From Saprospiraceae bacterium (lineage in GTDB: Bacteria; Bacteroidota; Bacteroidia; Chitinophagales; Saprospiraceae): a stretch of DNA of 64,000 nt. The notes beneath the pieces are model-generated. The model was not told where the DNA came from, searched no databases, and saw only the letters and a program-made list of their open reading frames with translations. A program made the position numbers and the translations under genes. The first letter of the stretch is position 1, and each line of letters begins with the position of its first letter. Below, in pieces: positions 1,721 to 58,558 of the stretch. The DNA is taken from assembly GCA_958295895.1 (NCBI GenBank), contig CATQHI010000001.1, forward strand, positions 62,001 to 126,000, read 5' to 3'.

Positions 1721-2656
1721 ATGGCACAGTTCATCGACTACTACCAAACGCTCGGCGTCGACAAGTCGGCCGACGACAAGCAGCTCAAGAAGGCCTTCCG
1801 CAAACTGGCCCGCAAGTACCACCCCGACGTAGCCCCCGACGACAAGGATGCCGAGCAGAAATTCAAGGCCGCCAACGAGGCCTACGCCGTGCTCTCCGAC
1901 CCGGAAAAGCGCAAGCAGTACGATAAGTACGGCAAGGACTGGGAACACGCCGAGGCCTTCGAGCAGGCCCGGCAGCAGGGGGGTGGATTCGGTGGCGGTG
2001 GCGGCGGTAATCCTTTCGGTGGACAGTACACCTACTCCGGTGGTGCCGAGGGGGCCGACTTTTCCGACTTCTTCCGCGATATGTTCGGCGGGGCCGCAGG
2101 TGCAGGCTTCGGGGGCGGAGGTTTCGGGGGTGCCGGTGGCGGTGCCCGGGCCTACCGGGGTCGCGATGTCGAAGCCGAACTCCGGGTGGGTATGCAGGAC
2201 GTACTGGAAGACAACAAGCAGGTACTTACCGTGGGCGATAAGCAACTGCGGGTAACGATCCCTGCTGGCGTAGAGGACGGACAGACGCTACGGCTACGCG
2301 GGCAGGGTAGTCCCGGTATGGGCGGCGGGCCGGCCGGTGACCTCTACATCACCTTCCGTGTCACCACACCGCCGGACTACCGCCGCGAGGGAGCCGACCT
2401 CTACAAGACGGAAGAGGTAGACCTGTACACCATGCTGCTTGGCGGTAAGATCACCGTGCAGACGCCCACCGGCGCGGTAAATCTGCCCATCGCGCAAAAC
2501 ACACCCAACGGAAAACGGGTACGGCTAAAGGGTAAGGGACTACCCAACTACAAGCAGGGCGGTAGTGGCGATCTTTACCTCGACCTGACGGTCAAGCTGC
2601 CGGAGTCCCTCACCGCCGCCGAACGAGAAGCCTTCGAGAAATTGGCCGGCCGGTAG
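1721..2656 (+). CDS. cbpA: CbpA-type J-domain co-chaperone
   Basis: 311 residues. An N-terminal J domain (about 5-70) has the HPD tripeptide at 34-36, which stimulates DnaK ATPase activity. A long glycine/phenylalanine-rich linker follows (about 86-145), then the C-terminal peptide-binding beta domains (about 147-305). The CxxCxGxG zinc-finger repeats of classical DnaJ are absent, which makes this the CbpA/DnaJ2 type. The next gene encodes a CbpM-like protein, the known modulator of CbpA, 19 bases downstream, supporting the assignment. The linker contains an exact copy of the dispersed 17-bp repeat (2087-2103), read here as part of the Gly/Ala-rich run, so the repeat sits in a tolerant part of the protein. 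Confidence 0.95.
2087..2103 (-). repeat. Dispersed 17-bp repeat, exact copy inside cbpA
   Basis: Exact GCACCTGCGGCCCCGCC on the minus strand. Read from the plus strand it encodes part of the G-G-A-A-G-A run in the flexible linker of CbpA (residues 123-128). Confidence 0.8.
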
Positions 2657-2675
2657 CCGCCTAAACGCTAGACCT

Positions 2676-2942
2676 ATGAAGCCCGGAGTAGCCTACATCA
2701 CCGTACAGCAATTTTGTGCCTTCCACCACTGCGAGACCGTAGTTATTGAGGAGTTTCTGGATTACGGCATCTTCAAGGTACAGCAGCAGAGTGAGATCCT
2801 CCTTATTCCCGAGGATCAGGTACCGCGCATCGAGCGGGCACTGCGGCTGCGCAATGACCTGGGGGTGAATGCCCCGGGCATCGACATCATTCTGCGCCTG
2901 GTGGAGCGGATCGAGGGGCGGGGTAGGGTGGAGGACCTTTAA
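2676..2942 (+). CDS. cbpM: CbpM-like modulator of CbpA
   Basis: 88 residues, matching the chaperone-modulator CbpM/MerR-like fold: an ITVQQFCAFHHC helix-turn start, a middle segment with ILLIPEDQVPRIERALRL, and a C-terminal helix with DIILRLVERIEG. In characterised bacteria CbpM binds the J domain of CbpA and limits its co-chaperone and DNA-binding activity. The position directly behind cbpA on the same strand is the usual arrangement. The stop codon (TAA, 2940-2942) overlaps the stop codon of the convergent methyltransferase gene (2939-2941 read on the minus strand) through the palindromic TTAA, so the two genes share three bases. Confidence 0.88.
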   Translation: MKPGVAYITVQQFCAFHHCETVVIEEFLDYGIFKVQQQSEILLIPEDQVPRIERALRLRNDLGVNAPGIDIILRLVERIEGRGRVEDL

Positions 2943-4497: not shown

Positions 4498-4530
4498 CGA
4501 TTCGTGTTTTGCCAAAAAACAATTCTCTGC

Positions 4531-4538: not shown

Positions 4539-4562
4539 GTTCCAATCTTCAAACTTGCACCC

Positions 4563-6958: not shown

Positions 6959-7075
6959 AGTACAATGCTGTCTCCGACAGCGCCAGTACAATGCGGCCTC
7001 CGGCCGCGCTACCCAGGTATTCCAGCGCAGCCAGAGGCTGCATTTTTCTACCGCTGCCGGAGGCAGCATCGTACT
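6959..7075 (+). repeat. Cluster of four REP-like hairpins
   Basis: Four short inverted repeats share the core GCKGYCTCCGRCMGC. Two are direct, each preceded by AGTACAAT (6959-6982 and 6985-7008). Two are in the opposite orientation (7026-7043 and 7052-7075); the last ends in ATCGTACT, the mirror of the AGTAC lead. This head-to-tail plus inverted arrangement resembles the REP/BIME clusters of other bacteria. It lies between the divergent symporter and DUF885 genes and runs to within 9 bases of the DUF885 ATG. A fifth copy is at 39214-39237. Confidence 0.75.
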
Positions 7076-7083
7076 TTCGCTGA

Positions 7084-8865
7084 ATGCGCTACCTCGTTCT
7101 CCTGCCCATCCTCCTCTGCACCTGCGGCCCCGCCGACCCCGACCCCTCCGCCGCCGCCACCGTAGATGAAGGCACCACAGATACTTTCCAGCAGCTCCTC
7201 ACCGACTACCAGGAAGGCCGTCTCCAGCTCAACCCCCTCGAGGCTACCTTCCTGGGCGACGACCGCTACAACGACCGCCTGCCCAACATGCTCTCCCAGG
7301 AGTACAAGGCCGAAAGCCGCGCCTTCTTTCAGGATTACTTTCAGCGCTTACAACAGATTGACCGCGATGCCCTCGGCCCCACCGACCGGGTGAGCTACGA
7401 CGTGCTCCACTGGGACCTAAACATCGCGCTACAGGGCTACGACTTCATGACCGAGCTGCTACCCCTCGACCAGTTTGACAGCCCCCACCTGATGATCGGG
7501 CAGCTGGCCAGCGGACAGAGCGCCCAACCCTTCCGGACCGCCGAGGACTACGAGAACTGGCTCGCGCGGCTGGAGGACTTTGCCGTAATGATGGACACCG
7601 CCAAGGTCAACCTACAGCGCGGCGCGGCAAAGGGCTACGTCCTGCCCCGCCCCCTGGCCGAAAAGCTGCTGCCCCAACTTGAAAGCCTGTCCGAGGAGCC
7701 GTTAGAGGACCACCTCTTCTACAGTCCCGTAAAGATGATGGACAGCCTTTCTACCGAAGACCGTGACCGCCTCACTCAGGAATATAAGCGTATGGTAGGT
7801 CAGCGGATCATCCCGCTCTTCACCGACCTGACGGCCTACGTGCGCGATGAGTACCTGCCGCAGACCCGCACCACCAGCGGCATCGACGCCATCCCGAACG
7901 GAGAGGCCTACTATAACTACCTCATCAAGCTTTACACCACTACCGATATGGGGGCCGACGAGATTCACGAGCTCGGCCTGAGTGAGGTGGCCCGCCTGCG
8001 CGGCGAGATGGAACGCGTGCAGGCCGAGGTCGGCTTCGAGGGGGAGCTCAAGGACTTCTTCGACTACGTCCGCACCCGCCCCGAGCTCATGCCCTTTACC
8101 AAACCCGAGCAGGTGATCGCCAACTTTGAGTCGATCTACGACCGGATGAAACCGCAGCTCAAGGTGCTGTTCAACAAGGTACCCAAGACGCCCTTCGAGG
8201 TGCGCCGCACGGAGGCCTTCCGCGAGGCCAGCGCCTCGGCGGAGTACAACCCCGGCAGTCAGGACGGCAGCCGCCCCGGCATCTTCTACGTCCCCATCCC
8301 CGCCGTGGAGGAGTACAACGTGTTCAGCGACGAGGACCTCTTCCTCCACGAAGCCATCCCCGGTCACCACTACCAGATCAGCCTTACCCTAGAGAACGAG
8401 GACTTACCCGCCTTCCGCCGTAACCTCTGGTACTCGGCCTACGGCGAGGGCTGGGCCCTGTACTGCGAGAGTCTCGGTCGTGAGCTCGGGCTGTACGAAG
8501 ACCCCTACCAGTACTTCGGTATGCTCTCGGCCGAGATGCACCGCGCCATCCGCCTGGTCGTCGATACCGGTATTCACAGCAAGGGGTGGACCCGCGAGCG
8601 CGCTATTCAGTATAGCCTCGATAATGAGGCGGAGAGCGAGGCCAGCATCGTGGCGGAGATCGAGCGGTATATGGCCATCCCCGGTCAGGCGCTGAGCTAT
8701 AAGGTCGGCCAGCTGAAGATCCGCGAGCTACGTGCCCGGGCGGAGGAGGCCCTGGGGGATGGGTTTGACGTTAGGGCCTTCCACGACTTGGTGCTGGAGG
8801 GGGGCTGTCTACCGCTGGCGGTACTGGAGCAGAAGGTCGACGGTTGGATCGCAGCAGCGAAGTAG
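7084..8865 (+). CDS. DUF885-family secreted metallopeptidase-like lipoprotein
   Basis: 593 residues. The N-terminus is a signal peptide with cysteines at 12 and 14 (PILLCTCGPADP), so it is probably a lipoprotein; the exact lipidated cysteine is uncertain. The family signature HEAIPGHHYQ (about 422-431) resembles the HExxH-type zinc site of M3-like peptidases, and YGEGWALYCESLG follows about 25 residues later, supplying the usual downstream glutamate. DUF885 proteins are widespread secreted proteins of unproven substrate, probably peptidases. The signal peptide is partly encoded by an exact copy of the dispersed 17-bp repeat (7118-7134), and another copy in reverse orientation lies directly after the stop (8866-8882), so the gene is bracketed by inverted copies. 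Confidence 0.9.
   Translation: MRYLVLLPILLCTCGPADPDPSAAATVDEGTTDTFQQLLTDYQEGRLQLNPLEATFLGDDRYNDRLPNMLSQEYKAESRAFFQDYFQRLQQIDRDALGPTDRVSYDVLHWDLNIALQGYDFMTELLPLDQFDSPHLMIGQLASGQSAQPFRTAEDYENWLARLEDFAVMMDTAKVNLQRGAAKGYVLPRPLAEKLLPQLESLSEEPLEDHLFYSPVKMMDSLSTEDRDRLTQEYKRMVGQRIIPLFTDLTAYVRDEYLPQTRTTSGIDAIPNGEAYYNYLIKLYTTTDMGADEIHELGLSEVARLRGEMERVQAEVGFEGELKDFFDYVRTRPELMPFTKPEQVIANFESIYDRMKPQLKVLFNKVPKTPFEVRRTEAFREASASAEYNPGSQDGSRPGIFYVPIPAVEEYNVFSDEDLFLHEAIPGHHYQISLTLENEDLPAFRRNLWYSAYGEGWALYCESLGRELGLYEDPYQYFGMLSAEMHRAIRLVVDTGIHSKGWTRERAIQYSLDNEAESEASIVAEIERYMAIPGQALSYKVGQLKIRELRARAEEALGDGFDVRAFHDLVLEGGCLPLAVLEQKVDGWIAAAK
7118..7134 (+). repeat. Dispersed 17-bp repeat, exact, in a signal peptide
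   Basis: Exact GCACCTGCGGCCCCGCC. It is read in frame as C-T-C-G-P-A (residues 12-17) in the DUF885 lipoprotein, spanning the lipobox. Confidence 0.8.
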
Positions 8866-8882
8866 GGCGGGGCCGCAGGTGC
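8866..8882 (-). repeat. Dispersed 17-bp repeat, exact, between convergent stops
   Basis: Exact copy on the minus strand. It begins directly after the DUF885 TAG (8863-8865), and its last base is the first base of the BNR gene stop (8882-8884, CTA on the plus strand). It therefore fills the whole gap between the two genes. Confidence 0.8.
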
Positions 8883-13309: not shown

Positions 13310-13326
13310 GCACCTGCGGCCCCGCC
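13310..13326 (+). repeat. Dispersed 17-bp repeat, exact, upstream of the aldehyde dehydrogenase
   Basis: Exact GCACCTGCGGCCCCGCC located 71 bases before the dehydrogenase ATG. It is followed at 13361 and 13384 by the octamer GCAACAAC, an arrangement repeated upstream of murQ and of the AAA+ ATPase gene. Confidence 0.8.
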
Positions 13327-18735: not shown

Positions 18736-18763
18736 AGCGGAGGGGGGATGAGCGGGCGGGCGG

Positions 18764-18771
18764 CAAAAATA
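18764..18771 (-). promoter_or_regulatory. -7 box of ileS
   Basis: TATTTTTG on the minus strand, a perfect TAnnTTTG match, 28 bases before the ileS ATG. No clear -33 TTG was found. The predicted transcript start is near 18757, giving a leader of about 22 bases. Confidence 0.5.
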
Positions 18772-18828
18772 GAAAAGCTCCCAGGCCCGTGGCCGGTAAC
18801 GACTCAGGCTAGCCCATAGTTTCAAGCG

Positions 18829-18845
18829 GGCGGGGCCGCCGGTGC
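18829..18845 (-). repeat. Dispersed 17-bp repeat, one mismatch, upstream of ileS
   Basis: GCACCGGCGGCCCCGCC on the minus strand, differing from the consensus at one base. It lies 93 bases upstream of ileS and just upstream of the opposite-strand TAnnTTTG at 18862. Confidence 0.65.
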
Positions 18846-21617: not shown

Positions 21618-22106
21618 TTATAGACGGCTGCTACTCACAACGCTGCTTACCAAGCCGGCATAGGTGATAGGTACCTTTACGGAATTAGCGATGAAGCACT
21701 TCTCGCCCGCTTCGTTGTGCAGTTCCCGCGCACGTTGCACCTGCGACCCCGCGATGATAATGGTTGGCCGGAGCGTGACGGAAGAAAAGGACCCCGCCCC
21801 ACTATCATCTTCCTGCATGGTGCCCTCGGCGTGGTCCTCGTACTCCAGTACTACGATGTCGTTGACGGCGGCAAGGTGAAGGTACCAGAGCATGTGGCAG
21901 GCTGAAATGCTGGAGAGGAAGAGTTCCTCCGGATTGTACCGGGACCGGTCACCCCGGAAGGCCGGATCGCTGGAGCAGGGGATGGTGGCCTCCTTCCCAT
22001 CGCCGGAGACCACATGGTCGCGGGAGTAAGCGCGGTAGTCGAGGGTGCCCGAGCCGTGGTTGCCGGTCCAGCGGGTGAGTGTGGTGTAATGGTGTTGGCG
22101 GTTCAT
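21618..22106 (-). CDS. OsmC-family peroxide-reducing protein
   Basis: 162 residues from the ATG at 22106 (MNRQHHYTTLTRWTGNHG); an upstream in-frame ATG at 22124 would add MCYFGC, unlike the family. Two catalytic cysteines occupy the OsmC positions: SSISACHMLWYLHLAAV and EAGEKCFIANSVKVPI. OsmC/Ohr proteins reduce organic hydroperoxides through these thiols. The substrate preference (Ohr or OsmC subtype) is not decided here; the form CHMLWYLHLA is frequent in the YhfA/OsmC-like branch. Divergent from rsgA with 49 bases between starts; TATTTTGG at about 22113-22120 on the minus strand could be a -7 box with imperfect spacing. Confidence 0.88.
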   Translation of the reverse strand: MNRQHHYTTLTRWTGNHGSGTLDYRAYSRDHVVSGDGKEATIPCSSDPAFRGDRSRYNPEELFLSSISACHMLWYLHLAAVNDIVVLEYEDHAEGTMQEDDSGAGSFSSVTLRPTIIIAGSQVQRARELHNEAGEKCFIANSVKVPITYAGLVSSVVSSSRL

Positions 22107-22155
22107 GCAACCAAAATAGCACATTGGTGCATTAGGTCTGTACTATGGTACGTCT

Positions 22156-24206: not shown

Positions 24207-24223
24207 GCACCCGCGGCCCCGCC
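24207..24223 (+). repeat. Dispersed 17-bp repeat, one mismatch, between Fic and methyltransferase genes
   Basis: GCACCCGCGGCCCCGCC, one base different from the consensus, beginning four bases after the Fic stop codon (24200-24202). Confidence 0.65.
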
Positions 24224-24244: not shown

Positions 24245-25168
24245 GTGCCCAACTGGATCCTAAAGGCCGCCGTCCAAAAAGCCATCTCCTTCCTGCCCTA
24301 CAAGCAGGACATCAACTTCTTTTTCCAGAAGCACATCACCCGCGGGGTCGACCTCGACGATACCCACTTCGGCTACAAACTCGCCGCGGCCCGCGACCAC
24401 ATCCGCTACTACCGAAAATACTGTACCGTACCGGCCCGGGAAACCACCGTCCTGGAGCTCGGCACCGGCTGGTACCCCATCGTGCCCACCCTGCTCTACC
24501 TAGCCGGCTTCGACCGCATCGTGACCATCGACATCCGCGACTGGACGAGCAAGGAGCGACAGCTCACGGCCATCCGCCGCATCCTCGACTACCACGATAC
24601 GGGGCGACTGCGGAAATACCTAGCGACGGTCGATTCCCAACGCCTAGCCGATTTGCGTGCCTCGGTGGAGCAGCCGCGGGACCACACCGTAGCCAGCCTC
24701 CACACCGCCATTCGCACCGAGGCCTGCATCATGGACGCCACCCAGCTCGACGCTGCCGACCACACCTTCGACTTCATCTGCTCCAACAACACCTTCGAGC
24801 ACATCCATACCCCCGTCCTGCGCGACATCCTGCGCGAGTTCAAGCGGGTCCTGAAACCCGGCGGCGTGATGAGCCACTTCATCGACCTGAGCGATCATTT
24901 CGCCCACCTGGACCCCGGCATCACCATTTATAATTTCCTGCGCTTCACCGAGCGGCAGTGGGCGACCATCGACAACAGCATCCAACCCCAGAACCGGCTG
25001 CGCTGGCGCGATTACGTGACCATGTACCGGGAGCTGGGCATCCCCATCCGGGAGGAGGAGGTAGTGAGCGGGGACGCAGGTGCACTGGCCACGGTGCCGG
25101 TAGCGGAGCAGTTTCGCGACTATACCGCGGCGGAGCTGGCGATCAGCCACGGCTCCATCATCAGTTAA
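24245..25168 (+). CDS. Class I SAM-dependent methyltransferase
   Basis: 307 residues starting at GTG 24245 (MPNWILKAAVQKAISFLPYK). Motif I is VLELGTGWYPIVPTLLYLAG (about 76-95), motif II DRIVTIDIRDW, and the later part has CSNNTFEHIHTPVLRDILRE and KRVLKPGGVMSHFID, the Methyltransf_11-type pattern. The central insertion between motif II and CSNNTFEH is long (about 75 residues). The substrate is unknown; the two glycosyltransferase-like membrane genes that follow hint at a cell-surface glycan context (inference). A two-mismatch copy of the dispersed repeat lies in the 3' part of the gene (25067-25083). Confidence 0.82.
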   Translation: MPNWILKAAVQKAISFLPYKQDINFFFQKHITRGVDLDDTHFGYKLAAARDHIRYYRKYCTVPARETTVLELGTGWYPIVPTLLYLAGFDRIVTIDIRDWTSKERQLTAIRRILDYHDTGRLRKYLATVDSQRLADLRASVEQPRDHTVASLHTAIRTEACIMDATQLDAADHTFDFICSNNTFEHIHTPVLRDILREFKRVLKPGGVMSHFIDLSDHFAHLDPGITIYNFLRFTERQWATIDNSIQPQNRLRWRDYVTMYRELGIPIREEEVVSGDAGALATVPVAEQFRDYTAAELAISHGSIIS

Positions 25169-29734: not shown

Positions 29735-31687
29735 TTAATCATCCATTGCCATAGTTCTTCCTACTAGCTTGACGACAAAGAAAAGCAGCATCAGCCCGCC
29801 GGCCATAAGGGACAGGCAGACCGTCCAGCCGCCCCCCAGCACGGTAGAAAGAAACCCGCAGCCCATCGCCACCGAGCCCACCGTCAGGGCGTACGGCAAC
29901 TGCGTACGCACGTGGTCGATGTGGTTACAGTCGGAAGCCAGACTACTCAGGATGGTGGTATCCGAAATCGGTGAGCAGTGGTCGCCCAGTACACTGGCGG
30001 CCAGCACGGTACTGATCACGTTGTAGAGCAGCCCGGCCGCATCCGGCTCCTCCCAGCCCGAGAACATGGCCACCGACCAGGTCAGTGGGATGGCGATGGG
30101 GTAGAGGATCGCCATCGTACTCCAACTGCTACCCGTAGAAAAGCTCACCACGGCGGCCAGGACGAAGATGACCGGCTGGAGAAAGTAGGGATTGAGCGCC
30201 TCGCCCAGCAGCTCCACCAGGAAGGTGGCCGTGTGTAGTTCCTCGGTGGTCAGCGCCAGGGCCCAGGCCAGGGTCAGGATCATCACCGCGGAGAACATCG
30301 CCTTGAAGCCGGCGGTGAGCGAGCCGATGGTCTGCTCGATGTTCATGATGCGCTGGCCGACGGTCATCGCCATGGCCACCAGTACCCCGCTCATGCTGGC
30401 CCAGAGCAGGGCCACGTAGCTATCGGCCGCGCCGATGGTCAGGCCGAGCTTACCGAAGAAGCCGCCCTCGAGGGCACCCCAGACGGCCGTCCAGTCGTTG
30501 GTGGTCATGGGCACGGCCATGGCGTCGGATAGGTTTTCCAGGCCGGTGTCGACCAGGCCCACGATGGTCATGATGACCACGACGGCTACCGGGATAGCGG
30601 CATTACGGGCGCGTAGCGGGGCACCGGGGATAGGGTCAAGGTCCTCCTGCTCAGTGCCCCCGGCGGCCTCCTCATTGACGCGCTTGACCATGCCGGTGGA
30701 GCGGGCACGGGCCTCGGCCTCCCACATCGCCCCGAAGTCGCGCCGCTGGTAGATGAGGAAGAGGATGAAGGCCAGGGTGAGCACCGGGTAGTAGCTGTAC
30801 TTCAGCGACTCGATGAACACCGCGTAGGGCGTAGTGCCGGCGAAGTGCTCGACCTGGTCGATGCCGTCGCCGATGTAGCCGAGCTCAGCGCCGATCCAGG
30901 TGGTGATGAAGGCCACCGAGGCCACGGGGGCGGCGGTGGAGTCTACGATGTAGGCCAGCTTCTCGCGACTGATGCGGAAGCGGTCGGTGACCGAGCGCAT
31001 GGTATTCCCCACGATTAGGGTGTTGGCGTAGTCGTCGAAGAAGATCGCTACGCCCAGTAGCCAGGTGACGAACTGCCCGCGGCGTGGGTTCGTGGCGTAC
31101 TGGGTCATCCGCTGCACCACCCCGGCCATGCCGCCGTTGCGACTGATGATGGCCACCATGCCCCCGATCATCAGGCTGAAGACCAGCACGCTCAGGTGGC
31201 CACTGTCGTTGAGGGAGTCGATGATGTAGGTATCGATGGTGGTCAGCAGCGCCTTAATCAGCCCCAGCATGAACTCAAAGCGGAAGCCCCCGGCAATAAA
31301 GGCCCCCACCCAGATGCCGGCAAAAAGCGAGATAATGACCTCCTTAAAAATCAGCGCCAATCCAATGGCGATCAGCGGCGGCAGGATCGACAGCCACAGC
31401 GGTACCCGCCGTAGCCGGTCCGGCCCCGGGTCCTTGCTCAAGTGGTAGAGCTCCGTCTGCTTGCCCGACTTGATGAGACTGATGCCGGGCTCAACGGGTA
31501 GCAGGAGTCCACCGGCTATGGGGCTAGCGGGCACGGTATCGCCATTCACCCTGAACACTGCACCCGCGACCGCGCCCTCTATAATTAGGCCCTGGTCGGC
31601 GGCTCGCACGCTGCTGTACTGCGCGTGGGAGAGACCGGAAGAGAGTGAAAATAGGAGGAGAACAATCAGGCGGGTAAGGGGAGGCAT
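29735..31687 (-). CDS. NhaC-family antiporter with a secreted N-terminal extension
   Basis: 650 residues from the ATG at 31687 (MPPLTRLIVLLLFSLSSGLS). The first 22 residues look like a cleavable signal peptide, followed by about 75 extracytoplasmic residues of beta character (GLIIEGAVAGAVFRVNGDTV, then GGLLLPVEPGISLI). The antiporter body starts around residue 100 (VPLWLSILPPLIAIGLALIF) and has about 12 membrane segments, including GGMVAIISRNGGMAGVV and SAWLLG-like FVTWLLGVAIFFDDYANTLI. FDDYANTLIVGNTMR is an NhaC/Na+-H+ antiporter hallmark. It exchanges Na+ or an organic ion pair for H+. The secreted extension is unusual. A possible promoter box (TATCTTGG) lies inside the 28-bp direct repeat. 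Confidence 0.88.
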   Translation of the reverse strand: MPPLTRLIVLLLFSLSSGLSHAQYSSVRAADQGLIIEGAVAGAVFRVNGDTVPASPIAGGLLLPVEPGISLIKSGKQTELYHLSKDPGPDRLRRVPLWLSILPPLIAIGLALIFKEVIISLFAGIWVGAFIAGGFRFEFMLGLIKALLTTIDTYIIDSLNDSGHLSVLVFSLMIGGMVAIISRNGGMAGVVQRMTQYATNPRRGQFVTWLLGVAIFFDDYANTLIVGNTMRSVTDRFRISREKLAYIVDSTAAPVASVAFITTWIGAELGYIGDGIDQVEHFAGTTPYAVFIESLKYSYYPVLTLAFILFLIYQRRDFGAMWEAEARARSTGMVKRVNEEAAGGTEQEDLDPIPGAPLRARNAAIPVAVVVIMTIVGLVDTGLENLSDAMAVPMTTNDWTAVWGALEGGFFGKLGLTIGAADSYVALLWASMSGVLVAMAMTVGQRIMNIEQTIGSLTAGFKAMFSAVMILTLAWALALTTEELHTATFLVELLGEALNPYFLQPVIFVLAAVVSFSTGSSWSTMAILYPIAIPLTWSVAMFSGWEEPDAAGLLYNVISTVLAASVLGDHCSPISDTTILSSLASDCNHIDHVRTQLPYALTVGSVAMGCGFLSTVLGGGWTVCLSLMAGGLMLLFFVVKLVGRTMAMDD

Positions 31688-31705
31688 ACGGCGAGCTTGG
31701 CCGGC

Positions 31706-31733
31706 CAAGATACGCTACCGCAGGAACCGCACC
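31706..31733. repeat. 28-bp direct repeat, left copy
   Basis: Twenty-eight bases identical to 37379-37406 and in the same orientation, starting CAAGATACGCTACCG. It lies just upstream of the NhaC start. In the right copy the same bases encode the last residues (VRFLR, stop) of the GH16 gene and the 10 bases after it, so this copy looks like the displaced end of that gene. Confidence 0.85.
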
Positions 31734-41662: not shown

Positions 41663-41781
41663 GGAATGCCCGCTTCGCTCGTCTGGTGTCATAGGGTGTT
41701 GCCTTTTACATTTGCCCTTGCACCTGCGGCCCCGCCATTGGCTTAGCCTACGACACTACACGAGTGAAGCGAGCATCCCCC
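41663..41781. repeat. Long imperfect inverted repeat around a 17-bp repeat copy
   Basis: Arms of about 28 bases (41665-41692 and 41750-41777) pair with about six mismatches and a few further pairs on each side, enclosing an exact copy of the dispersed repeat at 41720-41736. It lies in the 177-base gap before murQ. It could form a long hairpin in the murQ leader or be a remnant of a small mobile element. Confidence 0.55.
41720..41736 (+). repeat. Dispersed 17-bp repeat, exact, upstream of murQ
   Basis: Exact GCACCTGCGGCCCCGCC, sitting in the loop of the long inverted repeat, with the octamer GCAACAAC 59 bases further on (41796-41803). Confidence 0.8.
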
Positions 41782-45392: not shown

Positions 45393-47759
45393 CTAGTTGG
45401 GGTAGCTAAGGTACGTCTCGGCGTCGAGCATGCGGCCGACGTCGTTGGCCACGCTTTCGGCAACTTCCAGACTTCCGTCGGTATTGCGCGTCACTATGCC
45501 GATGCGAATAAGGCGCTGTAGGATGCTGCCGTAGCGGTCGGTATAGGCGGGGCCGAACAGCTTGCGCAGGCGGTAGTCGCGACCGCGCTTTTCGAGCAGC
45601 AGGGTGCTGAGTAGGGTAGCGGTGTCGGGCGAGAGGAAATTGGGCAGATTGTAGCGCCGCCCCCGCCGCTGACGTACCCGCTCGTCGTCGACCCGCTCGG
45701 TGTAGTAGGCCCAGCGGTTGATGGTATCGCCCACGTTGCCCTCCGTGGCCCGGTAAATGCGCCGCACGAGCTGCCCGAAAGCCGTCTCACTAATGGGTTC
45801 GCCCTCGGCATCGACCAGCTGCTTCTGGGTGGCACCGTGACGAATGAGCACGGCCCGCTGCATATCCTCCAGGGAGAAGCCATCCAGATTAATTTCGCTC
45901 TGGAATACCCGGTCGAGGTCCAGGAAGCGGTCCAGGTGGCGGTACACCGCGTTGGTGGTCGTGACGAGGTAGAAGATGCGCCCCGAGTAGTCGTCGATGT
46001 GCTCGCCCAGCGCCCGCACGTTCCGGGCCAGGCTGTGGTCATTATCCCACCAGAGCTCCAGGTCGTCGATCCACACCAGGGGGCGCGACTGTAGCGTGTA
46101 CTTCTGGACAAAGGCCAGCGCCTCGGCCAGGTCACCGCTGGTCTTGGTGCGGCGGCCCTGCACGGTGAGCTGGGCGTTGGGCTTCAGGCGGATGGTCTTT
46201 CCGGCAAAGAAGCGGTTGGTGATCATCTCGCCGAAGAGGGTCTTACCCGCCAGCCGGTTGCCGGTCAGTACCACCGAGCCGCGGTAGCCCAGGCGCCAAC
46301 TGTCGATGAGCTGCGCCAGGTGGTTCGTCTCCCGCTCGCGTCCTACCAGAAAGGACTCACCGATGTAGCCCCTGGTCATCAGGATATTGGTGTAGGCCGC
46401 ATTGTCGGGCGAGACGCTGCGCTGGCGGATCACCCGCACGGTGCGTTCGCTGATGCTCAGGCGGTCCTCGCGGGCGGCGTCGCCGAGGAGTTTATTGAGT
46501 CCGGTGACGTGCTCGCCCAGCCAGGTCTGTAGTCCGGTCACCCAGCGACTCTGGCGGTGGGTGAAGGCGTTGATACCCGACTGGAGGGGCAGCGGCAAAA
46601 AACCCGGCTCGGCCCGGTACACCGAGGTCAGCCGCAGGTCGCGCGCGATACGCTCCTCGAGGCGCCGGCGCAGATCGTTGTAGTCCTGGTGCCGCTGTCC
46701 GCTCCGCTCCGTGAAGTCCACGAAGGGCTGGGCCAGCGAGCTATTGGTGAAGGTCACGTCGTGGCCGGCCTTGACCTCGTTACTCAGCAGGAGGGCACGG
46801 TTGCGCACGTTGACCATCGCTACGTTGAGGCCGTTGCCGACCTGCTGGGCTACCTCCCAGAGTTCGTAGAGCAGGGGCATCACCTGGGCCGAGATCCACT
46901 GATCCGTGGCGCGGCGAAAGTTCACCTCCTTGTACCGCAGTAGGCCCTGATCGGAGGCCACCGTGACCCGCACCGACTCGGTCAGTTGGGCGGTCTTTGC
47001 CGTGATGGCATTGGTGAAGCGATCGAGTCGGGGCAGGGTGGCCTCCTCGGTGATGTAGTCTTCGAGTTTACTGGCGATCAGACCGGGGCGTTCCGGTTCA
47101 TGGTCACCGGTGCTGATGAAGTCGGTCAGTTCCCGGGCGCGCTGCTCGGCGCGGTCCATCACCTGCTGACTGGCCGCGATGGCCTCGTCGAGTAGCTCGC
47201 GTAGGGCGGCAAAGCGCTTTTGCTCCCGCTGCAGCTTGGTGAATTCCTTTGCCAGGCCCTCCGACTGTCCGGCCAGTTCCCCGAGTTGGTGGCGGTACAC
47301 GGTCCAGGGGTTATGCTGTAGTTGCCAGGCGCGGAGTTGCCTGCGGCGTTGTTTTTCGTCGCGTTCCAGGGCATCGTGCTGGTCACGGAAGTCGGTTTCC
47401 CATTCCCCCAGGGCTGCCTTCAACGCGTGGCGCGAGCGGGTGTACAGGTCAGCTACCTGATCGCGGTTCGAGGCCCCCTCGTTGACCAGCAGCGTGGCCA
47501 CCTGTAGTTGTAACTGCACGTCGCGGTACAACATCAGAAAGTGCTTGGCGCGCTCAGCCCACACGAAGTGCAGCAGGCGGCAGTCCAGGTTCAGCGGGTC
47601 CTCGTCCTCGCCGGTCGGGCAGGTATCTCCGCGGGCGATCATGGTATCGGCCAGCTCGCGAATGTGCTGGGCCATCTCCTCCACGGGCTCCTCCACGGTC
47701 AGGCGCTGGATACTGGATTCGGCGGTCACCGTGAGGGGGGCGGGCAGGATGGTCGACAT
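45393..47759 (-). CDS. AAA+/STAND-like ATPase with coiled-coil N-terminus
   Basis: 788 residues. The first 470 are helical and charged, with coiled-coil stretches (ALERDEKQRRRQLRAWQLQH, then KLQREQKRFAALRELLDEAI). FLVGRERETNHL, typical of the start of STAND/Orc-type ATPase modules, precedes Walker A GNRLAGKT (about residues 501-508) and Walker B RPLVWIDDLELWW. A C-terminal winged-helix-like segment (YGSILQRLIRIGIVTRNTDG) follows. There is no signal peptide or membrane segment. The operon continues with the MscS-like and antiporter genes, an unusual partnership suggesting ATP-dependent control of ion traffic (inference). I do not recognise the family; a defence role cannot be excluded. Confidence 0.75.
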   Translation of the reverse strand: MSTILPAPLTVTAESSIQRLTVEEPVEEMAQHIRELADTMIARGDTCPTGEDEDPLNLDCRLLHFVWAERAKHFLMLYRDVQLQLQVATLLVNEGASNRDQVADLYTRSRHALKAALGEWETDFRDQHDALERDEKQRRRQLRAWQLQHNPWTVYRHQLGELAGQSEGLAKEFTKLQREQKRFAALRELLDEAIAASQQVMDRAEQRARELTDFISTGDHEPERPGLIASKLEDYITEEATLPRLDRFTNAITAKTAQLTESVRVTVASDQGLLRYKEVNFRRATDQWISAQVMPLLYELWEVAQQVGNGLNVAMVNVRNRALLLSNEVKAGHDVTFTNSSLAQPFVDFTERSGQRHQDYNDLRRRLEERIARDLRLTSVYRAEPGFLPLPLQSGINAFTHRQSRWVTGLQTWLGEHVTGLNKLLGDAAREDRLSISERTVRVIRQRSVSPDNAAYTNILMTRGYIGESFLVGRERETNHLAQLIDSWRLGYRGSVVLTGNRLAGKTLFGEMITNRFFAGKTIRLKPNAQLTVQGRRTKTSGDLAEALAFVQKYTLQSRPLVWIDDLELWWDNDHSLARNVRALGEHIDDYSGRIFYLVTTTNAVYRHLDRFLDLDRVFQSEINLDGFSLEDMQRAVLIRHGATQKQLVDAEGEPISETAFGQLVRRIYRATEGNVGDTINRWAYYTERVDDERVRQRRGRRYNLPNFLSPDTATLLSTLLLEKRGRDYRLRKLFGPAYTDRYGSILQRLIRIGIVTRNTDGSLEVAESVANDVGRMLDAETYLSYPN

Positions 47760-47849: not shown

Positions 47850-47866
47850 GGCGGGGCCGCAGGGGC
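47850..47866 (-). repeat. Dispersed 17-bp repeat, one mismatch, upstream of the ATPase gene
   Basis: GCCCCTGCGGCCCCGCC on the minus strand, one base off the consensus, 91 bases upstream of the ATPase ATG. The octamer GCAACAAC (47796-47803 on the minus strand) lies 46 bases downstream, as in the dehydrogenase and murQ leaders. Confidence 0.65.
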
Positions 47867-47958: not shown

Positions 47959-48378
47959 ATGCCACCACTCACGCTACACCTCAAGCGCCTCGGAAAACAG
48001 CGGGTACGTACGGTCAGCTATCCGGTAGAAGCCTGGCCGGCTACCTTTCACGAGTTGCTGTGCACCTGCGTCCGCGCCGAGGTGATGCGCTATAATACCG
48101 GACAGCGTGGGGAAGCGGTGCTGCCGTACCTGCTACCGGCGGAGATTGACACCCAGCTACACACCCGGGGCAGGGTCACTTTTAACGACCCGGCCGAAAA
48201 ACGGCTAGTGGAGGCGGAACCCTGCATTGATGCCGCTCTGCTAGCCCTTAAGGACGGACTCTTTGCCGCCTTCGTCGACGACACGGAGCTTACTGCCCCG
48301 GAGCAGCCGTTGCACCTCAATCCCGAAAGTGTGGTCACCTTCATTCGCCTCACTTTCCTGGCGGGTAGCCCCTGGTAG
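47959..48378 (+). CDS. Uncharacterised protein upstream of the DUF4132-type gene
   Basis: 139 residues (MPPLTLHLKRLGKQRVRTVS), no signal peptide or membrane segment, and mixed alpha/beta. Short features visible are YPVEAWPATFHELLCTCVRA near the N-terminus and PLHLNPESVVTFIRLTFLAG at the end, before the closing SPW. I do not recognise a family. It sits 41 bases upstream of the DUF4132-type gene on the same strand under a strong promoter, so the two are probably cotranscribed and may work together. Codons 34-40 (LCTCVRA) are encoded by a two-mismatch relative of the dispersed repeat (48062-48078). Confidence 0.72.
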   Translation: MPPLTLHLKRLGKQRVRTVSYPVEAWPATFHELLCTCVRAEVMRYNTGQRGEAVLPYLLPAEIDTQLHTRGRVTFNDPAEKRLVEAEPCIDAALLALKDGLFAAFVDDTELTAPEQPLHLNPESVVTFIRLTFLAGSPW

Positions 48379-53488: not shown

Positions 53489-54634
53489 ATGCTACACTTC
53501 TACCGCAGCGCAGCACTCAGCTTCGTGCTCGCCCTGCTCCTCTCCTGCGGCGGTCCCGAACCCCGCCTCGCCCCCGCAGGTGAATACTGGCTGGTGCACG
53601 ATACGCTGCCGCCACCGCCGGAAGGTATCGCTACGCTAACCGCAACCCGCTTTGTGCTTGAAAACGACTCGGTGTACATCTACACACCAATCTACGGTCC
53701 GGGCACCCGCTACCCCGCCTACGCCGCCGATAGTAGCGCGCGGTTTGCGGACTCGATGTATGTCGTGTACCAACTCACCGACGACAGTACCGTACACCTG
53801 CGTATGCACGGCCCGCAGGGGGCATCCCCCGAACGGCTGCTTCGGCGGCGACCCACCGGACTGCGGCCCGCAGCCCTACCCCCTTCCGTAGCGGGTAAGA
53901 CGTACCGCTTCGATTTAGCGGATTCTCCTCTATTACTCTACTTTGGCGCGGTGGTCACTCCCCAAACAACGCTTAACCTACGGGGCGCGCCGCAAGTAAG
54001 GCCGATCGATCTACGTAAGAGCGACTCCATCGTTGGACCCCAGGGGTTACCCAGGGTAGGCCTATCCTACGCGGAATCGGTCGGGAAGAACCGAGTACTG
54101 ATTCACGATCTACTCGTGTGCGCTACGCAGCGGGGGGTGCCGCAGATATATGTGCTACGCGATGAAAGGGAAACCGGCGGCGGGGGAGTGCGCGGGCCCT
54201 ATCCCGGCATCCTTTACGGACCGGTAGTGCCGGCGGTGGAGGCCGATCAAAACATCGTAAACCGCCTACAACTGGGGCGGATTGAAGTCCTACCACCCGC
54301 ACCCGTTGACACAAGTAGTGGTTTTCGTCCGCTCTCCTTGCCACGCTACGGCGGTATAGCGTCCGGCAGCCTGCCTACCCTTGACTTCGAGTTCCGTGAT
54401 GATGGTACCTACCTGATGCTAGCGGAAAATGAAATCGTGGATGAGGGAAGTTGGGGCCTTTCCACCGACCGTAACTTTTTATTACTGGCCGGACCCCACG
54501 AGAATGAACCACCTATCCTGTACCCCTTCCTGGAATACAACGAAACCTACCTGTCGCTCGAACTACCCATCAGCATCTACAGCAGCAGTACCATGTACAC
54601 CACTACGGTACCCATACGCTTTTATGCCCCCTGA
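53489..54634 (+). CDS. Uncharacterised lipoprotein
   Basis: 381 residues with a lipobox signal peptide (SFVLALLLSCGGPEPRLAPA; the lipidated cysteine is at about 20). The rest is rich in short beta strands and tyrosine/threonine, as in GEYWLVHDTLPPPPEGIA and FEFRDDGTYLMLAENEIV, and has no catalytic motif I can see. The second half (about 270-380) resembles a lipocalin-like domain that ends in strands (WGLSTDRNFLLLAG); this is only an impression. Located between the DUF4132-type gene and a Dabb lipoprotein, both on the same strand. Confidence 0.75.
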   Translation: MLHFYRSAALSFVLALLLSCGGPEPRLAPAGEYWLVHDTLPPPPEGIATLTATRFVLENDSVYIYTPIYGPGTRYPAYAADSSARFADSMYVVYQLTDDSTVHLRMHGPQGASPERLLRRRPTGLRPAALPPSVAGKTYRFDLADSPLLLYFGAVVTPQTTLNLRGAPQVRPIDLRKSDSIVGPQGLPRVGLSYAESVGKNRVLIHDLLVCATQRGVPQIYVLRDERETGGGGVRGPYPGILYGPVVPAVEADQNIVNRLQLGRIEVLPPAPVDTSSGFRPLSLPRYGGIASGSLPTLDFEFRDDGTYLMLAENEIVDEGSWGLSTDRNFLLLAGPHENEPPILYPFLEYNETYLSLELPISIYSSSTMYTTTVPIRFYAP

Positions 54635-56169: not shown

Positions 56170-56170
56170 C

Positions 56171-58558
56171 CTAGTCCCCTAGTCGTCCTCGCTCCTCCTC
56201 ACTGGCGCTGCCCCTGCGTTCCCGCCCCTTCAAAAAGCGGTTGCCGAACTTGTAGGTCAGTTTCGCGGTGAAAATGGGTGCCTCCCAGGTGGAGCGGACG
56301 TCCAGGTCCTGCTCCTGGTAGTTGATAGTGCCGGTAAAGAACTGCTGGACGATCCCCTCGGCCGATAACACCAGGTTGAGGCGGTCGTCCAGCAGGTCTT
56401 TTTCCAGCCCTGCGTCGACGCCGTAGAGCGGGTCGTAGCGGATGATACCGTCCAGCCCCCGCCCCTGGTAAAAGCCCGTCACCTGTAGTTTCCACTCGTG
56501 GGGTAGCTTCACGTCGACCTGCGCGAAGGCCGTAAGACTGAGCTGATCCTGCGCGAAGTCGCCACCCAGGTAGTTACTGGTGTAGTCGTTGTAGTACAGC
56601 ATGAAGCCGCCGTACCCGCTTACGGGCTTGGCTACCCAGTCGAGGGGAAAATAGAGGCTGCCACCGTAGCGAACGTAGCGGTCCAGATTTACTGTGGTCT
56701 GGAAGGCCGCTCCGGTCAGGGGGTCCTGCTCGGTCACTTGACTGATGATATCACTGGTGAAGTCGTAGCCTAGGTTTAAAAAGGGCTGCTTATCGTAGGT
56801 CACGGAGAGCTGCCCGCTGTGGATGAGCTCCGGTTGCAGGAACGGATTACCCTTCGTGAAGGTGATGGGGTCGATGTAGGTAACGAAGGGATTAAGGTCG
56901 TAGTAGCTCGGCCGCTCGATGCGGTAACTGTAGGCCAGACTCACCCCGAAACTGCCCGCCAGGGGTGCATTCACACTCAGGCTCGGAAAGAGCTGGGCGA
57001 AGTCGCGCACGTTCGTACTATCGATGGTCACGTTGTAGCCCTCCATTTGGGTAGCCTCGTAGCGCAGGCCCAGATTCGCACTCCAGTCCCCCCGCTCCCA
57101 GGCCAGGGCCGTGTAGGCTGCCTCGATGTCCTCGTCGTACTGAAAACGGTTACTGAGGTTACGGTCGATCTCCATCACCCCGTTGATCTGTTCGCGGGCG
57201 AGTAGCTCGTTGTCCAGGGAGGCGCGACTCACCTTGGCGCCGGCGGTAAACACGTAGGCATCGCCCAGGGGCCGGCGGTAATCAACCTTTGCGCTGTAGA
57301 TCTTTGCCTCGGAAGGCTCCGCGTTCAGTCGGTCGTTGTACTCCGCCCCCTCCGTAGTTAGGGTAGTACGGGTATCGCGAGTGAAGGTGTTGAGGCTACC
57401 GTCGAAGGTCAGTTCCTGTCCGCTGGTATCGAGCTGGATGCGGTAGTAGGCATCCAGGTTCAGGTTATCGAAGTCGCGGCTGCGGTTGCGTAGGGTGGTG
57501 AAGCTTTCGCGTAGCGCTCCGGTGCTAGGGTCAAACACGTCGGTGCGGTTGGTCCCCGTATTCGGACTGTCGCCGAAGCTGTAGCGGCCATTGATGCCCA
57601 CCCGGTGCCGCTCGCTCAGATCGTAATCGGCCCCCAGTCGGACTTGGTAGCTATTCGGTGTACCGTACTCACTGTTGCGCTGCACAAAGGTGCGGTCGTC
57701 GAAGCGGCGCACCAGTTCCAGCCCCTCGACCCACTCGCGGCGGTTGTAGCTCAGTCCGCCGGTGAGGTTGAGCCCCCCGGCCTGGTGACTCAGTTCCAGC
57801 CCGGAGCGGTACTTGGGGCGCTCTCCGTAGCCGCCGCTGATATAGACCTGGCCGTTGGTGCCCAGTAGGCTATTTCTCTTCGGCACGATGTTGATCACCC
57901 CGCCGTTGCCCTCCGCGTCGTAGGCCGCCCCGGGCTGGCTGATCACCTCGATCGACTTGATGTTATCGGCCGGCATATCGCGCAGCAGGCTATTGACGTC
58001 CAGGTACTTGGTGGGGCGGCCGTCGATCAGGATCGTCAGTCCCGTCTTACCCGCCATACTGATGCGGTTACCGGCTACGACCACGCCCGGCACTTTCTTA
58101 AGGAGGTCGATCACGCTACCGCCCTGTCCGGTGATGGCCTGGTCCACGTTTACCACCAGACGGCCGGCTTTCTGCTCCAGGAAAGGCTTGGTGGCCGTTA
58201 CCTCGATGGTTTCCAGGTCGGTGGCGGCGCTTTCGAGGAGGTAGTCGGGTAGCGTCAAGTTTTCCCCCGCTGCTAGCGTGAATACCGGGTGGTCCTGTTG
58301 CGGCATCCCGATCCCCGTAGTTCGCACGAAGTAGCTGGCCGAGTCGAGGCCCGTGAAGGTGAAGCGCCCCTGTTCGTCGGCCAGTTCCAGCTTGACGACC
58401 CCGGAGTCCCGGGCGGCTAGGAGCAGTACGTTGGCAAACTCGGCCGGGCCGTTGGCAGTGCGTATTCGTCCGTTTATCACCCCATCCTGGGCCATCAGGA
58501 GGGCGGGGCCGCAGGTGCAAAGTAGGTAGAAGGAGCGGAGGAATCGTCGTGGGTGCAT
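56171..58558 (-). CDS. Outer-membrane beta-barrel protein, TonB-receptor-like
   Basis: 795 residues from the ATG at 58558 (MHPRRFLRSFYLLCTCGPAL). After the signal peptide a carboxypeptidase-regulatory-like domain (about 25-105; GVINGRIRTANGPAEFANVL) precedes a plug domain (about 115-230; VIDLLKKVPGVVVAGNRISM, NIKSIEVISQPGAAYDAEGN) and a long barrel region with many aromatic-ending strands, up to LTYKFGNRFLKG. This fits the OMP_b-brl_3/TonB-dependent receptor-like family. The plug motif GGVINIVPK is present; no TonB box can be seen. The signal peptide carries an exact 17-bp repeat copy (58502-58518). Confidence 0.88.
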   Translation of the reverse strand: MHPRRFLRSFYLLCTCGPALLMAQDGVINGRIRTANGPAEFANVLLLAARDSGVVKLELADEQGRFTFTGLDSASYFVRTTGIGMPQQDHPVFTLAAGENLTLPDYLLESAATDLETIEVTATKPFLEQKAGRLVVNVDQAITGQGGSVIDLLKKVPGVVVAGNRISMAGKTGLTILIDGRPTKYLDVNSLLRDMPADNIKSIEVISQPGAAYDAEGNGGVINIVPKRNSLLGTNGQVYISGGYGERPKYRSGLELSHQAGGLNLTGGLSYNRREWVEGLELVRRFDDRTFVQRNSEYGTPNSYQVRLGADYDLSERHRVGINGRYSFGDSPNTGTNRTDVFDPSTGALRESFTTLRNRSRDFDNLNLDAYYRIQLDTSGQELTFDGSLNTFTRDTRTTLTTEGAEYNDRLNAEPSEAKIYSAKVDYRRPLGDAYVFTAGAKVSRASLDNELLAREQINGVMEIDRNLSNRFQYDEDIEAAYTALAWERGDWSANLGLRYEATQMEGYNVTIDSTNVRDFAQLFPSLSVNAPLAGSFGVSLAYSYRIERPSYYDLNPFVTYIDPITFTKGNPFLQPELIHSGQLSVTYDKQPFLNLGYDFTSDIISQVTEQDPLTGAAFQTTVNLDRYVRYGGSLYFPLDWVAKPVSGYGGFMLYYNDYTSNYLGGDFAQDQLSLTAFAQVDVKLPHEWKLQVTGFYQGRGLDGIIRYDPLYGVDAGLEKDLLDDRLNLVLSAEGIVQQFFTGTINYQEQDLDVRSTWEAPIFTAKLTYKFGNRFLKGRERRGSASEEERGRLGD
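58502..58518 (-). repeat. Dispersed 17-bp repeat, exact, in an outer-membrane protein signal peptide
   Basis: Exact copy on the minus strand, read in frame as C-T-C-G-P-A (residues 14-19), the third signal peptide with the same peptide and frame. Confidence 0.8.

What the first reader, a model, noticed from the sequence alone, without database searches (positions are those of the whole stretch)
2087..58518. A dispersed 17-bp sequence, possibly an undescribed repeat family
GCACCTGCGGCCCCGCC occurs exactly at 2087, 7118, 8866, 13310, 29661, 41720 and 58502, and with one mismatch at 18829, 24207 and 47850, on both strands. Two-mismatch relatives are at 25067, 48062 and 62386. Chance cannot give seven exact 17-mers in 64 kb. 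Copies sit in intergenic gaps, in 5' leaders, in frame in signal peptides, and in a protein linker. The flanks differ and the core is not a palindrome, so it is not a classical REP. It could be a small mobile repeat, a DNA-uptake or chromosome-organisation sequence, or a regulatory site.
Basis: seen in the sequence. Interest (0 to 1): 0.78.

Follow-up and report, generated by a model that had tools for sequence, protein, structure and literature searches.

The report
Genus-wide DNA signature with species dialects
The repeated 17-letter sequence is real: it occurs hundreds of times across this marine bacterium's genome, related species carry other spellings of it, and it behaves like the tags by which some bacteria recognise and take up DNA of their own kind, which would be new for this branch of life if confirmed.

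Summary
The window belongs to the genus that holds Neolewinella aquimaris (Bacteroidota). Its genome has 569 places within one mismatch of GCACCTGCGGCCCCGCC (reversed control 2), or 931 for GCACCNGCGNCCCCGCC (control 9). In 396 sampled genomes of the order, genomes of other genera have 0-14 places; most of the genus has hundreds. Relatives use other spellings: GCACCTGCGGCAGCGCC (861 in G013), ACCTGCGCNCCGCCGCC (572 in G001), and in G011 a very different TTGCTACTTTGNNAGNC (926; 0-4 in each of the other 20). Copies lie on both strands at near-random spacing; 95 of 186 are in genes, in several reading frames, and intergenic density is 5.6-fold higher. Inside genes the motif is conserved at DNA level: in 21 copies with orthologues in G009, 61 of 70 synonymous third bases match against 35.7 expected; flanks show nothing. 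This speaks against a recently mobile repeat, a protein motif or a promoter as the general explanation. The pattern resembles DNA-uptake sequences of Neisseriaceae and Pasteurellaceae, including dialects. ComEC and DprA are present, but no type IV pilus motor was found in this genome, so the receptor would differ. Uptake is untested; I put DUS-like function at about 0.55.

The parts
2087..2103 (-). exact copy, inside the DnaJ gene (1721-2656 +), on the opposite strand; encodes GGAAGA in the Gly-rich linker
   Evidence: same motif in G009, and close forms in 6 of 11 relatives aligned (G004, G007, G009, G016, G017, G020) although the linker shifts
7118..7134 (+). exact copy in the signal peptide of a DUF885 lipoprotein (7084-8865 +), reading LLCTCGPA
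   Evidence: absent at this place in G009; four of the eight relatives shown have a copy upstream of the same gene instead
8866..8882 (-). exact copy in the gap between two convergent genes
13310..13326 (+). exact copy, intergenic, facing a downstream gene; the orthologous gap of G009 has GCACCTGCGTTCCCGCC
18829..18845 (-). one-mismatch copy (perfect to GCACCNGCGNCCCCGCC) upstream of the isoleucyl-tRNA synthetase gene (15454-18825 -)
   Evidence: not in the G009 gap
21737..21753 (+). two-mismatch copy inside gene 21618-22124 (-), opposite strand
   Evidence: not kept in the seven relatives aligned
24207..24223 (+). one-mismatch copy (perfect to the N form) between a Fic-domain gene and the next gene
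   Evidence: not in the G009 gap
25067..25083 (-). two-mismatch copy inside gene 24245-25168 (+), opposite strand; of eight relatives aligned, G009 and G020 carry GCACCTGCGTCCCC at the same codons
29661..29677 (-). exact copy in the signal peptide of a sulfatase lipoprotein (28281-29720 -), reading FLCTCGPA
   Evidence: no usable orthologue for this stretch in G009
31560..31576 (+). three-mismatch copy (one to the N form) in the Na+/H+ antiporter gene (29735-31708 -), opposite strand; seven of the eight relatives aligned keep a form of it at the same codons
41453..41469 (-). three mismatches, one to the N form, in the FG-GAP gene (39405-41639 +), opposite strand; close forms in six of eight relatives aligned (G004, G009, G012, G016, G017, G020)
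41720..41736 (+). exact copy between the FG-GAP and SIS-domain genes; a TACATTTG box lies 5 bases upstream of it; the G009 gap has GCACCTGCGCTCCCGCC
47850..47866 (-). one-mismatch copy, in a divergent gap upstream of gene 45393-47759 (-)
48062..48078 (+). two-mismatch copy (one to the N form) in a predicted short gene
53703..53719 (+). weak copy (three mismatches, one to the N form) in gene 53489-54634; not kept in G009, may be chance
58502..58518 (-). exact copy in the signal peptide of an outer-membrane beta-barrel protein (56171-58621 -), reading LLCTCGPALLMAQ; my gene script started this gene later and counted the copy as intergenic
59690..59706 (+). weak copy (three mismatches, one to the N form) in gene 59059-59817; kept in G009, but in a protein stretch that is itself invariant
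63321..63337 (-). two-mismatch copy (perfect to the N form); once the contig beyond the window is read it lies in a long gene, opposite strand, and G009 has it with one change

Best explanation
The 17-mer is the local dialect of a genus-wide, DNA-level recognition motif that most likely works like a DNA-uptake sequence. Proposed mechanism: an unidentified envelope DNA receptor prefers DNA bearing the motif; DNA goes in through ComEC and recombines with help from DprA and RecA. Uptake-biased recombination then spreads and maintains copies wherever genes and gaps tolerate them, and drift of the receptor's preference produces dialects that favour DNA of the same kind. SHOWN: abundance, restriction to the genus among the order's sampled genomes, dialects, location in gaps and in a few permitted reading frames, DNA-level conservation inside genes against one relative, no single gene-relative position, presence of ComEC and DprA. 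INFERRED: that a protein reads the motif, that it acts in uptake, and that dialects follow a receptor.
For: Abundance: 569 places (<=1 mismatch) against control 2; 931 against 9 for GCACCNGCGNCCCCGCC. Sharpness: in 1.066 Mb 122 perfect, 65 with one and 70 with two mismatches, against 0.07, 2.0 and 20 for 60 scrambled patterns. Genus restriction: of 396 genomes drawn from the order (18 of the genus, own included), those outside the genus have 0-14 places with controls of 0-9. Dialects. DNA-level conservation: 61 of 70 same-residue third bases identical in G009 against 35.7 expected (z 6.5); flanking 30 bp 119 of 242 against 127.1; 40 scrambled patterns mean z 0.26, largest 3.0. Reading frames 30, 20, 20, 19, 5, 1 of 95, with linkers, Gly/Ala stretches and signal peptides among the examples. 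Both strands; spacing fits an exponential (KS p 0.16) once one gap is set aside. That 72.8-kb gap holds a transposase gene and accessory carbohydrate genes. ComEC in 21 of 21 and DprA in 20 of 21 genomes. Dialects and permissive locations are reported for Neisseriaceae DUS (PMC3630211, passages), and atypical DUS distribution in mobile DNA (PMC7371117, abstract).
Against: No uptake or transformation experiment on this genus was found. DUS and USS systems known to me use type IV pili; the two PF00437 matches in the window's genome are a ClpB (over the cut-off only with its neighbours) and a helicase-like AAA protein (under it), so the known receptor class is unlikely. No excess of close inverted pairs (2 within 150 bp against 4.8 expected), unlike Neisseria DUS. 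At 17 bp or more it is longer than known cores (12 and 9 bp, recalled). In G000 copies in co-directional gaps lean to the direction of transcription (37:15), hinting at promoter or leader co-option. Genes with a G009 orthologue are not clearly richer than those without (21 in 143.1 kb against 10 in 84.4 kb). Copy-free islands: one case only. Intergenic enrichment is not seen in the small samples of G016 (6 of 6 in genes) and G020 (7 of 8). Three of 21 genic copies are absent in G009 and intergenic copies turn over. A conserved binding site of another protein would also give DNA-level conservation.
Confidence: 0.55

Rival explanations
1. Chromosome-organising or nucleoid-protein binding sites (in the manner of HIP1, KOPS, matS or SMC-related sites): a cytoplasmic protein of the genus binds ~900 sites for organisation, segregation or repair, and its preference has drifted between species.
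For: Abundance, DNA-level conservation inside genes, both strands.
Against: Spacing fits randomness, not evenness; no relation of orientation to local GC skew (r 0.06); near-complete replacement of the motif in one species (G011) would be unusual for an essential chromosome protein (established knowledge, recalled).
Confidence: 0.2
2. Regulatory site or promoter element: a global regulator binds between the -33 and -7 boxes or in leaders of many genes.
For: 5.6-fold intergenic enrichment and 37:15 orientation towards the downstream gene in G000; -7-like box 0-14 bp downstream in 13 of 58 gene-facing intergenic copies against 3, 7 and 5 of 58 in control windows; at the DUF885 gene four of eight relatives shown have the motif directly before a TATATT- or ATCTTT-like box.
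Against: 95 of 186 copies are inside genes on either strand (44 same, 51 opposite), with -7 boxes in 1 of 39 and 0 of 36; orientation 19:18 in 12 relatives pooled; perfect copies dominate, unlike typical regulator sites (recalled); of 75 adjacent orthologous gaps 2 share a copy with G009, 7 have it only in G000 and 2 only in G009.
Confidence: 0.12
3. Recombination hotspot of the Chi kind, read by an AddAB/RecBCD-type enzyme.
For: About one site per 5 kb; lineage-specific motifs are known for Chi (recalled); an AddA-like helicase-nuclease gene lies about 5 kb from comEC.
Against: 17 bp with two free positions is far longer than known Chi motifs of 5-8 bp (recalled); no relation to local GC skew.
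Confidence: 0.08
4. Small mobile repeat (REP/REPIN- or MITE-like) spread by a transposase.
For: Many dispersed copies on both strands; intergenic enrichment.
Against: No strongly conserved extension beyond the core and a few flanking bases; no unusual folding of the one copy tested; of 21 genic copies the G009 orthologue has the motif without a gap in 13, with two mismatches in 1, a gap in the motif in 4 (two of these with an own copy a few bases off), and no motif in 3; synonymous conservation.
Confidence: 0.04

Closest known systems
DNA uptake sequences (DUS) of Neisseriaceae and their dialects (PMC3630211; passages read)
   Same: Large copy numbers, both strands, permissive intragenic and intergenic places, dialects within a clade, part of the motif kept between dialects.
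   Different: Bacteroidota instead of Neisseriaceae; longer, two free positions; no inverted-pair excess; no type IV pilus motor found in the window's genome, so no ComP-type receptor expected; function untested.
Uptake signal sequences (USS) of Pasteurellaceae (PMC2346458 and PMC12616744, abstracts and outlines)
   Same: Abundance, orientation or reading-frame preference inside genes, several dialects.
   Different: Different sequence; the candidate receptor there is a type IV minor pilin; longer motif here.
Self-DNA preference in Riemerella columbina (PMC7965970, passages) and transformation in R. anatipestifer by unfamiliar machinery (PMC8459023, passages)
   Same: Bacteroidota; ComEC, DprA and a DUF1343 (PF07075) gene in both; preference for own DNA is what the motif would predict.
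   Different: That work lists abundant k-mers such as AAAAATAAAA and leaves their role open; no long dialect-forming motif shown in the passages read. DUF5689, part of one Riemerella transformation protein, was found in only 1 of 21 genomes here.
HIP1 of cyanobacteria (recalled)
   Same: Genome-wide over-represented motif of debated function.
   Different: HIP1 is a palindromic octamer; this is a long asymmetric motif with dialects.
REP/REPIN elements (recalled)
   Same: Dispersed short repeats.
   Different: REPs are mostly intergenic imperfect palindromes; here about half the copies are in genes and the core is not a palindrome.

Membership tests
DUS/USS (DNA uptake sequence) | strongly over-represented short motif on both strands of the host genome | tested here: met
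   569 places vs control 2, 259 + and 310 -
DUS/USS (DNA uptake sequence) | clade-limited, with dialects sharing part of the motif | tested here: met
   the skeleton shared with G011 is only a few positions, so common descent of that one is open
DUS/USS (DNA uptake sequence) | maintained at DNA level inside genes, in permissive segments | tested here: met
   61/70 vs 35.7 expected; frames 30/20/20/19/5/1
DUS/USS (DNA uptake sequence) | depleted in recently acquired DNA | tested here: inconclusive
   one 72.8-kb gap on an island-like stretch; genes with and without G009 orthologue do not differ clearly
DUS/USS (DNA uptake sequence) | frequent inverted pairs, terminator-associated (Neisseria) | tested here: not met
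   2 pairs within 150 bp against 4.8 expected; a feature of Neisseria DUS rather than a definition of function
DUS/USS (DNA uptake sequence) | competence machinery present | tested here: inconclusive
   ComEC 21/21, DprA 20/21, but both ring in most control genomes too; no pilus ATPase found in the window's genome; other pilus families and other genomes not searched
DUS/USS (DNA uptake sequence) | motif raises uptake or transformation | not testable with these tools
   needs an experiment
REP/REPIN or MITE mobile repeat | palindromic or terminal-inverted structure, mostly intergenic | tested here: not met
   no palindrome in the logo, one copy folded without surprise; 95 of 186 copies in genes
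REP/REPIN or MITE mobile repeat | clean presence/absence insertions at orthologous sites | tested here: not met
   relatives at about 83% protein identity only, so recent insertions, above all in gaps, could be missed
Regulator site or promoter element | preferred place relative to gene starts or promoter boxes | tested here: not met
   minority only: 13 of 58; 19:18 orientation in relatives; G000 alone shows 37:15
Chi/KOPS-type strand-biased motif | co-orientation with replication | tested here: inconclusive
   correlation with local GC skew 0.06 over 187 copies; draft contigs and weak skew limit the test

The most novel reading that the evidence does not exclude
This genus has a DNA-uptake-sequence system of its own, independent of type IV pili, in which a Bacteroidota-specific envelope receptor reads a long motif; the receptor's drift has produced a range of dialects inside one genus, up to complete replacement in one species (G011).
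Probability: 0.5. Interest if true: 0.9.

Novelty: new variant of a known kind. Interest (0 to 1): 0.78.

Why it matters
Dialect-forming uptake sequences are, to my knowledge, described only in Neisseriaceae and Pasteurellaceae, both with type IV pili. A third, unrelated occurrence in a phylum where transformation without known pilus machinery has been reported would show that sequence-tagged self-recognition of DNA evolves repeatedly. It offers 21 genomes of one genus with at least four clearly different spellings for finding the receptor by co-variation, and makes the open question of why some Bacteroidota prefer their own DNA directly testable. If it is not an uptake tag, about 900 DNA-level conserved sites per genome still point to an unknown genus-specific DNA-binding system.

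Tried and rejected
Mobile repeat: looked for clean insertions at orthologous loci; in genes 13 of 21 are gapless and kept, in gaps there is turnover that cannot be aligned at this divergence. Promoter element: attractive after the DUF885 loci, but general tests failed. Protein motif: rejected by use of several frames and by synonymous conservation. Phage origin: 19 stretches in the viral collection with one exact match each; they were not read further. An information-content estimate was diluted by background sites at <=3 mismatches and is not used. Similar motifs in other genera: no convincing candidate in 120 kb of G021, in 13-40 kb of eight other genera, or in five named 23-kb loci; G025 and G036 had 12-mers at 4 separate places that I did not follow, and G024 (5 kb) was fetched but not analysed. 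Power was low, since 40 kb of G000 itself and 120 kb of G009 did not rank the motif at the top, so this says little. DUF5689 as candidate receptor: found in only 1 of 21 genomes. The scrambled controls were invalid (a script default made every control reuse the true sites); one search replaces them. Gene calls are from a simple hexamer script, so in-gene and intergenic counts shift between runs (95/91 of 186, 100/87 of 187) and some gene starts are wrong (58502).

Literature searched for a prior description (PMC open-licence library only, search listings); none of the listed titles and abstract starts described such a motif in Neolewinella or Bacteroidota; two searches were for DUS/USS background. 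Papers: PMC3630211, PMC7965970, PMC8459023 passages; PMC7371117, PMC2346458, PMC12616744 abstract and outline. Nothing was read in full.


Full report
WHAT WAS CHECKED. Up to three mismatches there are 22 places in the window against 0.84 expected. In 1.066 Mb of the same genome, window included, 56 exact copies were found against about 0.003 or fewer expected. In the whole assembly (4.77 Mb, 35 contigs) 569 places lie within one mismatch, 259 forward and 310 reverse; the pattern read backwards gives 2.

WHOSE GENOME. The relative G017 has a contig of 313,679 bases, the length of a contig of Neolewinella aquimaris DSM 105137, whose IleRS gene lies at the same coordinates. The window therefore belongs to the genus, as the tool groups it, that holds N. 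aquimaris; the species was not identified.

ANATOMY. In 864 kb, the 96 copies within one mismatch (47 exact, 49 with one; copies near stretch ends dropped) show the logo TTGCACC[T/c]GCG[G/n]CCCCGCC(C), with the loosest positions 6 and 10 of the core, a preference for TT just before it and weaker preferences for C at -4, A at -9 and C at -11. With the two loose positions open (GCACCNGCGNCCCCGCC, the N form) the genome holds 931 places, control 9. In 1.066 Mb the counts by mismatch are 122, 65 and 70 for 0, 1 and 2, against 0.07, 2.0 and 20 for 60 scrambled patterns: perfect copies dominate.

WHERE COPIES LIE. Of 187 copies (<=1 mismatch to the N form) in 1.066 Mb, 186 could be placed: 95 in predicted genes (44 same strand, 51 opposite) and 91 between genes, about 104 and 582 per Mb. 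In co-directional gaps 37 point with the genes and 15 against; 32 are in divergent and 7 in convergent gaps. In 12 relatives, each with its own dialect pattern and only 31-260 kb each, the co-directional counts are 19 and 18, and genic copies 49 and 49; intergenic enrichment varies, and in G016 (6 of 6 genic) and G020 (7 of 8) it is not seen. Reading frames in genes are uneven: 30, 20, 20, 19, 5 and 1 of 95. Readings seen in the alignments include GGxAGA, APAAP, AGTRV and LCTCGPA; in the frame of the last, 10 of 19 copies lie within the first 40 codons. Spacing fits an exponential apart from one gap of 72.8 kb, which has an expected number of about 0.0002 and contains a transposase gene and carbohydrate-use genes with stretches of lower GC. 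There is no correlation with local GC skew and no excess of close pairs.

GENUS AND DIALECTS. Among 59 relatives each of the 20 same-genus genomes has a match to the 17-mer, from 1 (G011) to 835 (G005); the other 39 have 0 or 1. In 396 genomes drawn from the order, genomes outside the genus have 0 to 14 places of the N form (the 14 in G345, control 6; controls elsewhere 0 to 9). The 17 relatives of the genus in that draw have 8 (G011) to 1450 (G005); G001 (9), G007 (57) and G013 (59) are also low and spell it otherwise. Other orders and phyla were not searched. Words found without a prior pattern in relatives, and with an ACCYGCG seed, show other spellings. Three were counted in all 21 genomes of the genus, <=1 mismatch: ACCTGCGCNCCGCCGCC, G001 572, G007 220, G012 204, G020 199, G016 175, G000 77, and 2 each in G013 and G011, controls 0-4; GCACCTGCGGCAGCGCC, G013 861, G006 780, G005 420, G000 20, 0 in G001 (one mismatch also catches the related GCACCTGCGGCCGCGCC); TTGCTACTTTGNNAGNC, G011 926 and 0 to 4 in each of the other 20. 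G011's 28 seed copies in 100 kb extend to roughly CCAaCATTGCTACTTTGwtAGyCaaaA, sharing with G000 the C at -4, TT before and GC at the start. Whether G011's motif descends from the same ancestral motif or replaced it is open.

DNA-LEVEL CONSERVATION. A 266-kb stretch of G000 and 260 kb of G009 share 123 reciprocal best genes, median identity 83%. Of 30 genic copies in G000, 21 lie in such genes. In 13 the aligned G009 sequence has at most one mismatch to the N form, in 1 it has two, in 4 a gap falls in the motif (in two of these G009 has its own copy a few bases off), and in 3 the motif is absent (recounted). At codons with the same residue and a third base in a fixed motif position, 61 of 70 third bases agree against 35.7 expected from the same codons elsewhere (z 6.5). 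The 30 bp on either side give 119 of 242 against 127.1. Forty scrambled patterns, at <=3 mismatches so that they have matches, gave mean z 0.26, largest 3.0. Residue identity in motif codons (93 of 118) is about that elsewhere (whose scrambled controls were invalid). This test used one pair of species. At single genes the motif can persist more widely: in the Na+/H+ antiporter seven of eight relatives keep a form of it, in the FG-GAP gene six of eight, in DnaJ six of eleven; at 21737 none of seven does. Between genes turnover is faster: of 75 adjacent orthologous gaps 2 share a copy, 7 have it only in G000 and 2 only in G009.

PROMOTER OVERLAP. At the DUF885 gene G012, G016, G020 and G001 have their own spelling directly before a TATATT- or ATCTTT-like box, whereas G000 has its copy in the signal peptide. 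In general 13 of 58 gene-facing intergenic copies have a TAnnTTTG box within one mismatch 0-14 bp downstream, against 3, 7 and 5 of 58 in control windows, and 1 of 39 and 0 of 36 genic copies. I read this as occasional co-option: the TTG at the head of the motif could serve as a -33 box (inference).

INTERPRETATION. A motif this abundant, sharp, strand-neutral, randomly spaced, permissively placed and synonymously conserved in genes, and spelled differently among related species, is what uptake-biased recombination is thought to produce in Neisseriaceae and Pasteurellaceae. Competence genes are present: ComEC in 21 of 21 genomes, DprA in 20 of 21, and a DUF1343/NamZ gene, needed for transformation in Riemerella, in 20 of 21 (the miss in both cases is the 55% complete G010). 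These are common genes and do not prove competence. A type IV pilus motor was not found in the window's genome: the two PF00437 matches are a ClpB and a helicase-like AAA protein; other pilus families and the other genomes were not searched for this. R. anatipestifer transforms with ComEC, DprA and proteins unlike known machinery (PMC8459023, passages), and R. columbina prefers its own DNA (PMC7965970, passages), so a pilus-free receptor in Bacteroidota is plausible but inferred.

VERDICT. Real, undescribed as far as the named searches reach, and not an artefact. I do not file it as a DUS, because the defining function was not tested; I say that it most likely works like one (0.55). The chief rival is a genus-specific chromosome or repair protein.

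Noticed in passing
window 6963-7070: A second repeat family: neighbouring hairpin units such as GCTGTCTCCGACAGC, GCGGCCTCCGGCCGC, GCAGCCAGAGGCTGC and GCTGCCGGAGGCAGC, with changes on both sides of the stem and TGTAC-like spacers; similar units recur elsewhere in the genome and in G020. The stretch folds far better than shuffles (z -8.8).
   Followed up: partly
G000:C3 about 230000-302800 (L062-L066): A 72.8-kb stretch without any copy of the motif (<=1 mismatch to the N form), with lower-GC ends, a transposase gene and SusCD/GH43/arabinose isomerase-like genes; looks like an acquired island.
   Followed up: partly
G000:C2:226251 (L042): A copy of the motif lies inside the ComEC gene itself, and an AddA-like helicase-nuclease gene lies about 5 kb away.
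   Followed up: no
L095-L098 (G007), L103-L104 (G005), L109-L110 and L141-L145 (G015): Some species of the genus have other high-copy short repeats such as CCAATTCAGTCATTCA, TACCTGATACCTGATA and CAGACTAACAGACTAA, probably tandem arrays.
   Followed up: no
L083-L086 (G004): A repeat around ACCGCTATAGCCGTCCAAC, its best 14-mer 9 times in 80 kb.
   Followed up: no
L239-L240 (G025), L249-L250 (G036), other genera: 12-mers such as CTTGGATAGGAG and CTTCCGTAAATG at 4 separate places in 40 kb each, far above expectation; could be repeats or motifs of those genera.
   Followed up: no
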